Shown: one piece after another, positions 1 through 13,777 of the stretch
Layout: every line of letters starts with the position of its first letter
How positions within the stretch are numbered: position 1 is the first letter of the stretch
NCBI RefSeq assembly: GCF_014217685.1
Contig: NZ_CP043653.1
Coordinates: 1 to 64,000 of the forward strand
Reading direction: 5' to 3'
Length of the DNA stretch: 64,000 nt
Origin: Glaciihabitans sp. INWT7
GTDB taxonomy: Bacteria > Actinomycetota > Actinomycetes > Actinomycetales > Microbacteriaceae
The notes under the pieces: generated by a model
What the model was told of the DNA's origin: nothing
The model's input: the letters and a program-made list of their open reading frames with translations, nothing else
Database searches by the model: none
Program-made: the position numbers and the translations under genes

Positions 1-1440
1 ATGAGTGACATCACGGATTCAACCCAGGAGATCTGGACATCCGTACTCACGACTCTGCGCACTGACGACCGGATCACCCCCCAGCTCCAGGGATTCCTCA
101 GCCTGGTCGAACCCAAAGGTGTCATGGCGGCGACGCTCTATCTCGAGGTACCCAACGACCTGACCCGCGGAATGCTCGAACAACGTATCCGATTGCCGCT
201 CCTCGACGCGCTGAACGGGCTCGACGGCGAACAGTCGGTCAGTAATTTCGCGATCGTCGTGAACCCGGAGATCGCCCACGACGCCCTCAGCCATCCCTCG
301 GCCGATGCGCTCGAACAGCAGCCGCAGCCCTACATCGAGCAGCCGATGGCACCGACGCCCCCCACCGAAGGGATCGCTTCCGGCACACGCCGGGCTGATT
401 CGCGGCTCAATCCGAAATACAACTTCGACAACTTCGTCATCGGAGGGTCCAACAGGTTCGCTCATGCCGCGGCGGTCGCGGTGGCCGAGGCGCCGGCGAA
501 GGCCTACAACCCCCTCTTCATCTACGGGGACTCCGGCCTCGGTAAGACCCACCTCCTCCACGCGATCGGCCATTACGCCGAGAGTCTCTACCCGGGCATC
601 CGTGTGCGGTATGTGAGTTCCGAGGAGTTCACCAACGACTTCATCAACTCGATCGCCAACAACCGTGCCTCGGTTTTCCAGTCGCGCTATCGCGAGATCG
701 ACATCCTGCTCATCGACGACATCCAGTTTCTACAGCGGGCGGTGGAGACGCAGGAAGCTTTCTTCCACACCTTCAACACCCTCCACGACCACAACAAGCA
801 GGTGGTCATCACCAGTGACCTGCCGCCGAAGGCCCTCACCGGGTTCGAGGACCGCATGCGGTCCCGGTTCGAATGGGGACTGATCACGGATGTTCAGGCG
901 CCCGACCTCGAGACCCGCATCGCCATTCTGCGCAAGAAGGCCCAGAGCGAGAAGCTGCAGGTGAGTGCCGAGATCCTGGAGTACATGGCAACGAAGGTCT
1001 CTTCCAACATCCGCGAACTCGAGGGGACCCTCATCCGGGTCACCGCCTTCGCCAGCCTCAACCGCACACCCGTCGACCTCGCGCTCGTCCAGACCGTGCT
1101 GAAGGACCTGATCACCCTCGACGACGACAACGTCATCGCGCCGGTCGACATCATCAACCACACCGCGGAGTACTTCAAGTTCACCGTCGACGATCTCTAT
1201 GGCTCGTCCCGGTCCCAGGCCGTCGCGACCGCCCGGCAGATCGCGATGTACCTCTGCCGGGAGATGACCAACCTGTCCCTCCCCAAGATCGGCCAACTCT
1301 TTGGCAACCGCGACCACACCACGGTGATGTACGCCAACAAGAAGATCACCGAACTCATGAAAGAACGTCGCTCGATCTACAACCAGGTAACGGAACTCAC
1401 CAGCCGCATCAAGCAGAATCACCGCTACAACTCGATCTAA
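1..1440 (+). CDS. dnaA: Chromosomal replication initiator protein DnaA
   Basis: DnaA binds the 9-bp boxes in oriC, oligomerises as an ATP complex, melts the DNA unwinding element and loads the helicase. At 479 aa it has the usual actinobacterial length. Domain I (about residues 1-85) is followed by a short Pro/Gln-rich linker (domain II). The AAA+ core has Walker A GDSGLGKT near residue 176 and Walker B ILLIDDIQFL near 236. The C-terminal domain IV carries the DnaA signature around DHTTVMYANKKI (about 438-449). It starts with ATG at base 1, which fixes the numbering of the window at dnaA. The box-rich non-coding region follows directly. Confidence 0.99.
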   Translation: MSDITDSTQEIWTSVLTTLRTDDRITPQLQGFLSLVEPKGVMAATLYLEVPNDLTRGMLEQRIRLPLLDALNGLDGEQSVSNFAIVVNPEIAHDALSHPSADALEQQPQPYIEQPMAPTPPTEGIASGTRRADSRLNPKYNFDNFVIGGSNRFAHAAAVAVAEAPAKAYNPLFIYGDSGLGKTHLLHAIGHYAESLYPGIRVRYVSSEEFTNDFINSIANNRASVFQSRYREIDILLIDDIQFLQRAVETQEAFFHTFNTLHDHNKQVVITSDLPPKALTGFEDRMRSRFEWGLITDVQAPDLETRIAILRKKAQSEKLQVSAEILEYMATKVSSNIRELEGTLIRVTAFASLNRTPVDLALVQTVLKDLITLDDDNVIAPVDIINHTAEYFKFTVDDLYGSSRSQAVATARQIAMYLCREMTNLSLPKIGQLFGNRDHTTVMYANKKITELMKERRSIYNQVTELTSRIKQNHRYNSI

Positions 1441-1820
1441 GCGCCAAGGTAGACGACTCAGTCTCGCAGTGTGGATAACCTGTGGATAACTGTGGAACAC
1501 GCCGATAAACACTGTGCAATCAAAACCCGCCCTGTGGAAAGTCCCTCGAGCGAATGCGAGGCAGCATCCTCGATTCGCCGTCGAATGCCACATCTTCCCC
1601 ACAACTCACACTGTTGTAGTTCCCCGCTCTCGACGACCATCGACAGAGTTATTCACAGATCGCACAACGGTTAAGAGTGTTAATCCTTAATGACAATTAT
1701 TTTGGAGAAGATAACCCTTGGGTCGGAGGTAAGAACCGGCTGTGCCAGTATTAACCTCCCGGATCACCGCTCGCTCCGAGAGCGCCAATTCGATAGCAGG
1801 TTCGATAGCAAGGGGTGCCC
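1441..1820. other. Origin of replication (oriC) between dnaA and dnaN
   Basis: This 380-bp non-coding gap holds DnaA-box-like 9-mers. Two perfect TTATCCACA boxes lie on the minus strand (as TGTGGATAA) at 1470-1478 and 1481-1489. One-mismatch TTATTCACA is at 1649-1657, and weaker matches are TTCCCCACA at 1595-1603 and TGTGGAAAG at 1533-1541. An AT-rich stretch at about 1670-1716 is the best DNA-unwinding-element candidate and is conspicuous against the high-GC background. A 12-bp direct repeat (unit ending TTCGATAGCA, copies at 1787-1798 and 1799-1810) lies just before dnaN. Position and box density support oriC; the exact unwinding site is inferred. Confidence 0.92.
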
Positions 1821-12599: not shown

Positions 12600-13454
12600 G
12601 TGAGCGAGGGGTCGGCCAACGCCGACGACTTCTGCTACCGGCATCCGGATCGCCAGAGTTTCATCCTCTGCCAGCGCTGCGGACGCACGATCTGTGCCGA
12701 ATGCCAGACACCGGCCGCCGTCGGTGTGCATTGCCCAGAATGCATGCGCGAGTCGCGGCAGAGTGCCCCGCGCACGAAGCCTGCCGTCGTCACCTCGGTG
12801 CGTCGAATGGCTCAGCCCGGGGCTCCGCTCGTCACGTATGTGATCATGGCACTCTGCGTGATCGTGTTCGCGGCCGAGGCACTCACCGGCCAGCTCGTCG
12901 GGCGGGGCAGCCCGATCGTCAGTGCATTGCTGTACTACCCCCCGTACACGTCGATCGAGCCGTGGCGGATGCTGACGTCCCTGTTCGTGCACGGATCGAT
13001 CATCCACATCCTCTTCAACATGTATTCGCTTTTCGTGCTCGGACCGGAGCTCGAACGGCTGGTGGGGCGATGGCGCTTCCTTGCGCTGTTCCTGTTGAGC
13101 GGATTCGGCGGCTCCGTGGCTGTGCTGCTCAGCAGTCCGGGCTCGGCGGTCATCGGGGCATCCGGCGCGATCTTCGGACTGTTCGGTGCCTACTTCGTGA
13201 TCGCCCGCCACCTCGGCGGCAACAGCCGTCAGCTCATCATCGTGATCGTGATCAACCTGGTGATCGGTTTCATCGTGCCGGGTATCGCCTGGCAGGCACA
13301 CGTGGGCGGGCTGCTCGTCGGAGCACTCGTCGCCTTCCTCCTGGTGCGCACCCGCGACCGCAGCCGGCGAGGCATCCAAGTGGTCTCACTCGCCGGGGTC
13401 TTCGTGGTGTTGATCGGGGCGACCTTCGCCGGCGTGCAGCTCATCGGCGCATGA
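12600..13454 (+). CDS. Rhomboid family intramembrane serine protease with N-terminal zinc finger
   Basis: Rhomboids cut transmembrane helices within the membrane. The 284-aa product starts at GTG 12600. It has an N-terminal B-box-like zinc finger (CYRHPDRQSFILCQRC...ICAEC...HCPEC, residues 12-50) and then about seven membrane segments. The catalytic Ser lies in GASGAIFG and the catalytic His in WQAHVGG of a later helix; the membrane-entry HGSIIHILFNMYSL is typical. The zinc-finger/rhomboid arrangement is common in actinobacteria. Natural substrates are unknown. It is convergent with crgA. Confidence 0.94.
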   Translation: MSEGSANADDFCYRHPDRQSFILCQRCGRTICAECQTPAAVGVHCPECMRESRQSAPRTKPAVVTSVRRMAQPGAPLVTYVIMALCVIVFAAEALTGQLVGRGSPIVSALLYYPPYTSIEPWRMLTSLFVHGSIIHILFNMYSLFVLGPELERLVGRWRFLALFLLSGFGGSVAVLLSSPGSAVIGASGAIFGLFGAYFVIARHLGGNSRQLIIVIVINLVIGFIVPGIAWQAHVGGLLVGALVAFLLVRTRDRSRRGIQVVSLAGVFVVLIGATFAGVQLIGA

Positions 13455-13462
13455 GCCCGGAG

Positions 13463-13493
13463 TTATCCACAGGCTTTTCCACACTGGGGATAA
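13463..13493. promoter_or_regulatory. Cluster of three DnaA boxes outside oriC
   Basis: In 31 bp there is a perfect TTATCCACA (13463-13471), a one-mismatch TTTTCCACA (13475-13483, same strand) and a one-mismatch TTATCCCCA on the opposite strand (13485-13493). It lies between the convergent rhomboid and crgA genes, 12 kb from oriC. DnaA titration or regulation is inferred. Confidence 0.6.
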
Positions 13494-13509
13494 TTACACG
13501 CGTGTAATT
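13492..13509. repeat. 18-bp perfect palindrome AATTACACGCGTGTAATT
   Basis: The two 9-bp half sites are perfectly symmetric, with flanking GGGG and CCCC adding imperfect pairing. It abuts the DnaA-box cluster in the convergent rhomboid/crgA gap. It has no T-tract, so a protein-binding site or bidirectional terminator are both possible. Confidence 0.8.
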
Positions 13510-13531
13510 GCCCCTGTGCGGGGGCGCGGGA

Positions 13532-13777
13532 TCAGCGCCAGCGAGTGGTCATCAGGAAGCCCACGAAGAGGATTCCGAAGCCGATGAGGATGTTCCACTG
13601 GTCGAACTGCGGAACGGGAAGAGTGCCCTGGCTCACGTAGAAGACGATGATCCAGGCGAGGCCGATGAGCATGAGACCGAACATGATCGGTTTGAACCAG
13701 ACCGGGTTCGGAGCGTCGTCCCCCGAACGATTCGTTTCGGAAGCAACGGCCTTGGTGCGCGGAGTGGATCTTGCCAT
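13532..13777 (-). CDS. crgA: Cell division protein CrgA
   Basis: CrgA is a small actinobacterial membrane protein that interacts with FtsZ, FtsI and other septum and wall-synthesis proteins. The 81-aa product has a basic, Ser/Thr-rich cytoplasmic N-terminus. Two transmembrane helices lie at about residues 29-50 (PIMFGLMLIGLAWIIVFYVS) and 62-78 (ILIGFGILFVGFLMTT), joined by a short loop with the typical QFDQWNILIGF. It lies close to the cell-wall operon that begins at 24.3 kb, as in other actinobacteria. Confidence 0.95.
   Translation of the reverse strand: MARSTPRTKAVASETNRSGDDAPNPVWFKPIMFGLMLIGLAWIIVFYVSQGTLPVPQFDQWNILIGFGILFVGFLMTTRWR

What the first reader, a model, noticed from the sequence alone, without database searches (positions are those of the whole stretch)
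13463..13509. DnaA-box cluster plus 18-bp palindrome 12 kb from oriC
Three DnaA boxes (one perfect, two with one mismatch) fall within 31 bp and run into AATTACACGCGTGTAATT. The gap lies between convergent rhomboid and crgA genes, where no promoter is needed. Such a compact box group outside oriC could titrate DnaA (as datA or DARS-like sites do) or control initiation.
Basis: partly seen in the sequence, partly recalled or inferred. Interest (0 to 1): 0.55.

Follow-up and report, generated by a model that had tools for sequence, protein, structure and literature searches.

The report
Conserved DnaA–McdR site near origin
A 50-letter stretch near the replication origin of this bacterium joins docking sites for the replication starter DnaA to a sequence that matches the docking site of a cell-division regulator (McdR/ResR); it is kept in many related bacteria, so it may help tie chromosome copying to cell division.

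Summary
In detail: three DnaA boxes in 31 bp run into AATTACACGCGTGTAATT between convergent rhomboid and crgA genes, 11.6 kb from oriC. It is not chance: a profile of the 50-bp element hits 142 of 149 Microbacteriaceae genomes (127 at E<=1e-6) and 140 of 296 genomes of the class. The palindrome matches, without mismatch, AATnACAnnnnTGTnATT, the published operator of the essential MerR-family regulator McdR/ResR (Rv1830; PMC9040748), and its conservation largely follows that operator's tested rules. An mcdR orthologue was found in 30 of 30 genomes searched, this one included; near-identical palindromes sit before whiB genes. In mycobacteria the gap beside crgA (Rv0010c–Rv0011c) binds DnaA and its palindrome is a clinical mutation hotspot, read by its authors as DnaA boxes (PMC7738170). 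So the DnaA half is known in mycobacteria; the McdR half, the class-wide conservation and the shared operator set are the new part, unless the 2022 Science resR paper, which I could not read, already has it. The mechanism (McdR gating a DnaA reservoir) is inferred; no binding was tested here.

The parts
13461..13510 (+). whole conserved composite element (model R1)
   Evidence: 62.4 bits, E 2e-18 in window; 142 of 149 family genomes
13463..13471 (+). DnaA box 1, TTATCCACA, in extended conserved context AG-TTATCCACA-GG
   Evidence: box columns 1.1-2.0 bits in the 67 loci scored
13475..13483 (+). DnaA box 2, TTTTCCACA, 12 bp downstream of box 1
   Evidence: start-to-start spacing 12 in 59, 11 in 8 and 22 in 1 of 68 loci with two boxes
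13485..13493 (-). DnaA-box-like site 3, TTATCCCCA, opposite direction
   Evidence: TGGGGATAA exact in 57 of 80 loci; whether it binds DnaA is not known
13492..13509 (.). palindrome = predicted McdR/ResR (MerR family) operator AATnACA-N4-TGTnATT, 0 mismatches
   Evidence: motif from PMC9040748
12600..13454 (+). rhomboid-family intramembrane protease gene
   Evidence: PF01694 E 4.5e-34
13532..13777 (-). crgA, cell division protein
   Evidence: PF06781 E 3.4e-28
1..1440 (+). dnaA
   Evidence: PF00308, PF08299
1441..1820 (.). dnaA-dnaN gap, presumed oriC
   Evidence: the same gene pair found by tblastn in relatives
1467..1491 (-). two tandem DnaA boxes in oriC, same module as left half of the element
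   Evidence: R1 20.3 bits, model positions 2-27
1604..1621 (.). weak McdR-like site inside oriC, 2 mismatches
   Evidence: one of 11 places at up to 2 mismatches in the genome (control 2); same place at 2 or fewer mismatches in 9 of 12 family genomes

Best explanation
The gap holds a conserved origin-proximal regulatory site made of DnaA boxes joined to an operator of the cell-cycle regulator McdR/ResR. Shown here: anatomy, conservation, exact motif match, an mcdR orthologue in this genome, and the shared motif before whiB. Shown by others in mycobacteria: DnaA binds the gap beside crgA, McdR binds this motif and represses whiB2, changes in that gap lengthen cells as dnaA changes do, and excess McdR raises origin-proximal copy number. 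Inferred: the site holds DnaA as a small reservoir that doubles soon after initiation; McdR, whose operator overlaps box 3 by 2 bp, displaces or reshapes the bound DnaA, so that a cell which represses division (low WhiB) also resets how much DnaA is free for oriC.
For: Palindrome matches AATnACAnnnnTGTnATT with no mismatch (motif). Over 79 aligned loci the ACA and TGT columns have 2.0 bits, three of four spacer columns 0.44-0.50, flanks mostly 0.0-0.3, close to the published mutants (spacer letters free, length fixed). 79 of 80 crgA loci carry operator plus box, 0 of 80 controls. Element kept when 0.8-1.05 kb away from crgA (6 of 80) or inverted (6 of 80). Genome-wide 11 places at up to 2 mismatches (control 2), among them crgA gap, whiB and oriC. 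Contexts of the 30 family sites fetched: 24 whiB, 6 crgA/rhomboid. McdR orthologue in 30 of 30 genomes, MerR domain; upstream of it CGACACGC, the published WhiB2 motif. Mycobacterial-type genomes carry DnaA boxes plus exact motif by crgA. DnaA binding at Rv0010c-Rv0011c, longer cells, origin copy number with excess McdR.
Against: No binding was tested in this organism. The McdR DIP-seq text names whiB2, MSMEG_0833 and MSMEG_5468; the other two of five peaks are not named in the text I read, and crgA and DnaA do not occur in it. The first spacer base is not free (C, 1.14 bits). Box 3 stays TTATCCCCA in 57 of 80, so its conservation may reflect something other than DnaA. 7 of 149 family genomes lack the element, and all 7 keep mcdR. 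The oriC motif is degenerate and was absent from the 8 dnaA-dnaN gaps scored outside the family. 9 of 27 motif loci fetched from f21 lie in neither the whiB nor the crgA context. Extra origins under McdR excess could follow from blocked division alone.
Confidence: 0.5

Rival explanations
1. Plain DnaA site: the palindrome is just further DnaA-box-like sequence, as the authors of the mycobacterial study read theirs, and the locus titrates or otherwise regulates DnaA without McdR.
For: DnaA binds the mycobacterial gap; its authors describe the palindrome as two sequences resembling DnaA boxes. The first two boxes here are clear DnaA boxes.
Against: The palindrome with the same fixed spacing also sits before whiB genes (24 of 30 family loci, 12 of 27 f21 loci) and matches the tested McdR operator at all 12 specified positions.
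Confidence: 0.15
2. DARS-like site: three DnaA boxes with one reversed assemble ADP-DnaA and speed nucleotide exchange, raising ATP-DnaA.
For: One box opposite to two others, as in the DARS core (passages of PMC5742627).
Against: DARS1 and DARS2 cores share one spacing; here the gap from box 2 to the palindrome, into which box 3 runs, is 7 to 11 bp in 67 of 68 loci and 18 in one.
Confidence: 0.12
3. Transcription element: promoter of a small or antisense RNA, or a terminator between the convergent genes, repressed by McdR.
For: One promoter-like match TCCACA-17-GATAAT lies on it (0.1 expected in shuffles); the operator would cover the -10/start, much as at whiB2, where the motif lies around the start.
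Against: No terminator-like site. The first hexamer, TCCACA, is poor. Element persists when inverted or 0.8-1.05 kb away from crgA. GATAAT is not kept in the Agromyces, most f21 and f39 versions seen. In M. tuberculosis neither neighbour changes in dnaA mutants.
Confidence: 0.12
4. The palindrome belongs to another developmental regulator such as BldD or MtrA.
For: The BldD half-site TNAC/GTNA resembles it and BldD targets whiB in Streptomyces.
Against: BldD boxes have N5, here N6; MtrA binds direct repeats.
Confidence: 0.03

Closest known systems
Rv0010c-Rv0011c DnaA interaction site of Mycobacterium tuberculosis / M. smegmatis (PMC7738170: abstract, sections 9 and 10, other passages seen)
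   Same: DnaA-box cluster plus small palindrome in a gap beside crgA (Rv0011c = crgA is recalled); DnaA binds it in vitro and in vivo; mycobacterial-type genomes here carry DnaA boxes and an exact McdR motif by crgA.
   Different: There both flanking genes have complement-strand tags, so not a convergent pair; the palindrome was read as DnaA boxes and Rv1830 does not occur in the text.
McdR/ResR operator of whiB2 (PMC9040748: sections 6 and 7, other passages seen)
   Same: Same 18-bp motif, 4-nt spacer, MerR-family regulator present in the genome.
   Different: There it represses a promoter; here it adjoins DnaA boxes between the 3' ends of two genes.
datA of E. coli (PMC5742627 passages)
   Same: DnaA-box cluster on the origin side of the chromosome, paired with a site for a second protein.
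   Different: datA is 262 bp, all essential boxes point the same way, the partner is IHF; here about 50 bp, mixed directions, a division regulator.
DARS1/DARS2 of E. coli (PMC5742627 passages)
   Same: Three boxes, one reversed.
   Different: Spacing here varies between species; DARS2 works with IHF and Fis, for which no sites were sought here.
DnaA-box clusters of Streptomyces coelicolor and Bacillus subtilis (named in a passage of PMC5742627)
   Same: Clusters outside oriC that repress untimely initiation.
   Different: I saw nothing on a McdR operator there; their sequences were not compared.

Membership tests
Rv0010c-Rv0011c-type DnaA site | location beside crgA, near oriC | tested here: met
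   13.0-16.3 kb from contig start in the 11 family contigs fetched that start at dnaA
Rv0010c-Rv0011c-type DnaA site | cluster of DnaA boxes with a small palindrome | tested here: met
   same architecture in six mycobacterial-type crgA loci
Rv0010c-Rv0011c-type DnaA site | DnaA binds it | not testable with these tools
   shown only in mycobacteria
McdR/ResR operator | AATnACAnnnnTGTnATT | tested here: met
   0 mismatches at 13492-13509
McdR/ResR operator | 4-nt spacer free in sequence, fixed in length | tested here: met
   at this spacing 46 of 80 loci exact, 28 one, 5 two, 1 three mismatches; three spacer columns 0.44-0.50 bits, but the first 1.14 bits
McdR/ResR operator | mcdR gene in the genome | tested here: met
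   G000:C1:1342233-1342616, 67% identity over 128 residues; MerR_1 domain
McdR/ResR operator | McdR binds it | not testable with these tools
   needs gel shift or ChIP
datA | essential boxes all in one direction | tested here: inconclusive
   boxes 1 and 2 agree, site 3 is reversed, if it is a DnaA box at all
datA | IHF site between boxes; DnaA-ATP hydrolysis | not tested
   no IHF site was sought; hydrolysis needs an assay
DARS | three-box core, one box reversed, constant spacing | tested here: not met
   direction fits, spacing varies between species
DARS | releases ADP from DnaA | not testable with these tools
   biochemical feature
BldD box | TNAC-N5-GTNA | tested here: not met
   spacing is N6
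MtrA site | direct repeat of a GTnAC-type motif | tested here: not met
   the conserved unit is an inverted repeat; no scan for MtrA repeats was run

The most novel reading that the evidence does not exclude
Across the class, one regulator (McdR/ResR) has a small set of operators placed at the decision points of the cell cycle: a DnaA-binding switch roughly 10-16 kb from oriC, in the Microbacteriaceae oriC itself, before whiB, and in other families before nrdR-nrdJ with DnaA-box-like sequence beside it. McdR and DnaA act on each other at the switch, so replication licensing, nucleotide supply and division share one control; the mutation hotspot in the M. tuberculosis gap would then be a McdR operator and not a DnaA box.
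Probability: 0.4. Interest if true: 0.85.

Novelty: new variant of a known kind. Interest (0 to 1): 0.62.

Why it matters
How actinobacteria time replication and tie it to division is largely open (general knowledge, not searched here). A 50-bp site that puts the initiator's boxes against a division regulator's operator, kept across a class that includes mycobacteria, gives a small, directly testable candidate. It also offers one explanation for why dnaA and the Rv0010c-Rv0011c palindrome and resR and whiB2 all turn up as recurrently mutated or selected in clinical tuberculosis strains.

Tried and rejected
BldD: half-sites fit but spacing is one base too long. MtrA: direct repeats. Terminator: none found, and the element moves and inverts relative to crgA. 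Search of papers for six literal forms of the palindrome: none. Searches for DnaA-box clusters with Streptomyces and H69, and for DnaA boxes with crgA and rhomboid, listed nothing to the point (listings only). In The DnaA Tale (PMC5835720) the words Streptomyces, Mycobacteri- and Actinobacteri- do not occur. A first regex collection of elements failed through a slicing error and was redone. The last step printed nothing and was redone. One search chose a wrong-strand site for L052, so its mismatch and box counts are off for that locus. The shuffles keep base composition only, 300 per gap. No structure prediction was made.

Full report
What is there. The window starts at dnaA (1-1440) and the dnaA-dnaN gap is 1441-1820. 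Between the convergent rhomboid (12600-13454) and crgA (13532-13777) genes lies AGTTATCCACAGGCTTTTCCACACTGGGGATAATTACACGCGTGTAATTG (13461-13510): two DnaA boxes in one direction 12 bp apart, a third box-like site reversed, and an 18-bp palindrome that overlaps the third by 2 bp. The whole genome has 17 exact TTWTCCACA (reversed control 7), and only oriC and this gap have two of them within 100 bp.

Conservation. One search found 321 encoded CrgA relatives and kept the best 80, from named Microbacteriaceae and metagenome-assembled genomes. In all 80 the best-scoring site is within 3 mismatches of AATnACAnnnnTGTnATT and has a DnaA-like box beside it (46 exact, 28 one, 5 two, 1 three, which took the wrong strand in L052). 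With at most 2 mismatches and at least one box it is 79 of 80, with at least two boxes 68 of 80; reversed sequences gave 0 of 80 for both. It lies within 300 bp of the crgA stop in 74, of which 6 (the Curtobacterium loci) have it inverted, and 0.8-1.05 kb away in 6. A sequence profile (R1, 42 rows) matched 142 of 149 family genomes at E<=0.001 (75 of 78 genera; 127 of the 142 at E<=1e-6 by my count of the rows), 165 of 248 in the order sample and 140 of 296 in the class sample (19 of its 27 f21 genomes and 3 of its 30 f34 genomes by my count). The three samples overlap, and weak hits may be DnaA boxes alone. Context was checked only for loci fetched: crgA, rhomboid or their neighbour ppi lies in 30 of 30 loci, 27 of 29 new loci and 20 of 21 new loci. 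The 7 family misses are five genomes of 0.9-1.9 Mb and two of one genus. Some genomes have boxes on both sides of the palindrome (overlapping opposite hits).

What the palindrome is. Exact ATTACACnnGTGTARTT sites occur in 58 of 120 family genomes; the reversed pattern gave 0 in every row. Of the 30 sites fetched, 24 are by whiB and 6 by crgA/rhomboid (neighbour within 1.2 kb). In this genome one with 1 mismatch to the McdR motif lies at 642372-642389, before a WhiB-family gene. I first considered BldD and MtrA and dropped them on spacing and symmetry. The match came from PMC9040748 (sections 6 and 7 read): McdR (Rv1830) represses whiB2 by binding AATnACAnnnnTGTnATT; changing the arms or the spacer length abolishes this, changing the spacer letters does not. 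The palindrome at 13492-13509 matches with no mismatch. The conservation profile over 79 distinct rows largely repeats these rules: ACA and TGT 2.0 bits, the last three spacer columns 0.44-0.50, most flank columns near 0.1; the first spacer column, C at 1.14 bits, does not fit a wholly free spacer. By eye on translations, the gene order in this genome is FHA-domain protein, an FtsR-like MerR protein, mcdR (67% identity to Rv1830 over 128 residues; the names FHA and FtsR are recalled). Upstream of it is CCGACACGCCGACACC, which contains the WhiB2 motif cGACACGc reported for the mycobacterial feedback loop. All 30 genomes searched, including the 7 that lack the element, have an mcdR orthologue.

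Mycobacterial counterpart. In M. tuberculosis (in vitro) and M. smegmatis (ChIP-seq) DnaA binds five regions, one being Rv0010c-Rv0011c; a small palindrome there is recurrently changed in clinical strains and was described as two DnaA-box-like sequences (PMC7738170 section 9). Rv0011c is crgA (recalled). Three such changes lengthened cells as dnaA mutations do (section 10). The f21 genomes, which I take for mycobacteria and relatives from 97-98% identical Rv1830 hits in two of them, all have the McdR motif at up to 1 mismatch (27 of 27; reversed control present in 4). By crgA some have sequences such as GTTATCCACAagtgcTATCAACAaTGGGGATg-AATCACACGCGTGTGATT: boxes plus an exact motif (6 of the 27 loci fetched; 12 others are by whiB and 9 in neither context). 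I did not read the M. tuberculosis gap itself, so that its hotspot is a McdR operator is an inference from these relatives.

oriC. In the window 1604-1621 (2 mismatches) is one of 11 places in the genome at that level (control 2). At the same place in the dnaA-dnaN gap, 9 of 12 family genomes have 2 or fewer mismatches (window, L156 by eye, L157-L160, L164-L166), L161 and L162 have 3, L163 has 4. Shuffles reached the best score with frequency 0.000-0.053 in 11 of 12 and 0.28 in L163 (for L156 the place scored is another one). None of the 8 gaps scored outside the family has it (lowest frequency 0.083). This is suggestive only.

Third context. In several other families the exact palindrome lies before nrdR and, where the neighbour was read (L245), a B12-dependent ribonucleotide reductase gene, beside DnaA-box-like GTCCACAGG-type sequence. 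Of the 30 loci fetched (some of them of the own family), 12 are crgA/rhomboid, 9 nrdR, 7 whiB and 2 other. Class-wide, 62 of 296 genomes have the exact 14-mer; the reversed control appears in 11 genomes by my count of its rows.

Mechanism. Shown: anatomy, conservation, motif identity. Known from mycobacteria: DnaA binds the gap; McdR binds the motif; excess McdR raises copy number near the origin (PMC9040748 section 6), as expected if McdR frees DnaA, though blocked division could do the same. Inferred: DnaA bound at the site is a reservoir duplicated right after initiation; McdR at its operator, 2 bp into box 3, changes DnaA occupancy. The site may work like datA in position and in pairing DnaA boxes with a partner protein, but I do not file it as a datA or a DARS (passages of PMC5742627).

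Limits. No binding data were found for this organism. The 2022 Science paper on resR is not held; passages in papers that cite it say that ResR acts with WhiB2 and WhiA and has a site in the whiB2-fbiA gap. Four searches of the open-access library for McdR/ResR/Rv1830 together with WhiB2, DnaA, oriC or Rv0010c listed no paper that joins McdR/ResR to the DnaA site (listings, of which one search showed 15 of 43 and 15 of 533); in the two McdR/ResR papers opened the word DnaA does not occur. If the unheld paper reports ResR at this gap, the McdR link is known in mycobacteria and what remains new is its conservation across the class and the shared operator set.

Noticed in passing
L208-L211, L213, L215, L221, L223, L224 (other families): The same palindrome lies before nrdR (in L245 followed by a vitamin B12-dependent ribonucleotide reductase gene), with DnaA-box-like GTCCACAGG-type sequence beside it.
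   Followed up: partly
own genome C1:318305-318322 (L325): An exact McdR motif 158 bp before the start of a NlpC/P60 hydrolase open frame, with GCGACACGCC (WhiB2-type motif) nearby.
   Followed up: partly
own genome C1:1825192-1825209 (L326): An exact McdR motif upstream of a DUF3145 gene.
   Followed up: partly
window 1604-1621: Degenerate McdR-like site inside oriC, at the same place with 2 or fewer mismatches in 9 of 12 family members, followed by CCC.
   Followed up: partly
L262, about 1280-1300: Upstream of mcdR in this genome is CCGACACGCCGACACC, so the WhiB2-McdR feedback loop of mycobacteria may exist here.
   Followed up: partly
L164 (15463 and 16036), G053 contig 3, G116 contig 20: Two copies of the element about 140 to 570 bp apart.
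   Followed up: no
L286, L288, L290, L292, L296: A further recurrent exact McdR motif in f21 genomes (AATTACAGGTGTGTAATT or close) in a conserved context, gene not identified.
   Followed up: no
window 13510-13525: Short GC-rich hairpin GCCCC-TGTGCG-GGGGC right after the palindrome, not conserved in sequence; perhaps a terminator without a T run.
   Followed up: no
L206, L207: Exact palindrome beside what looks by eye like a tRNA gene in two genomes of one genus.
   Followed up: no
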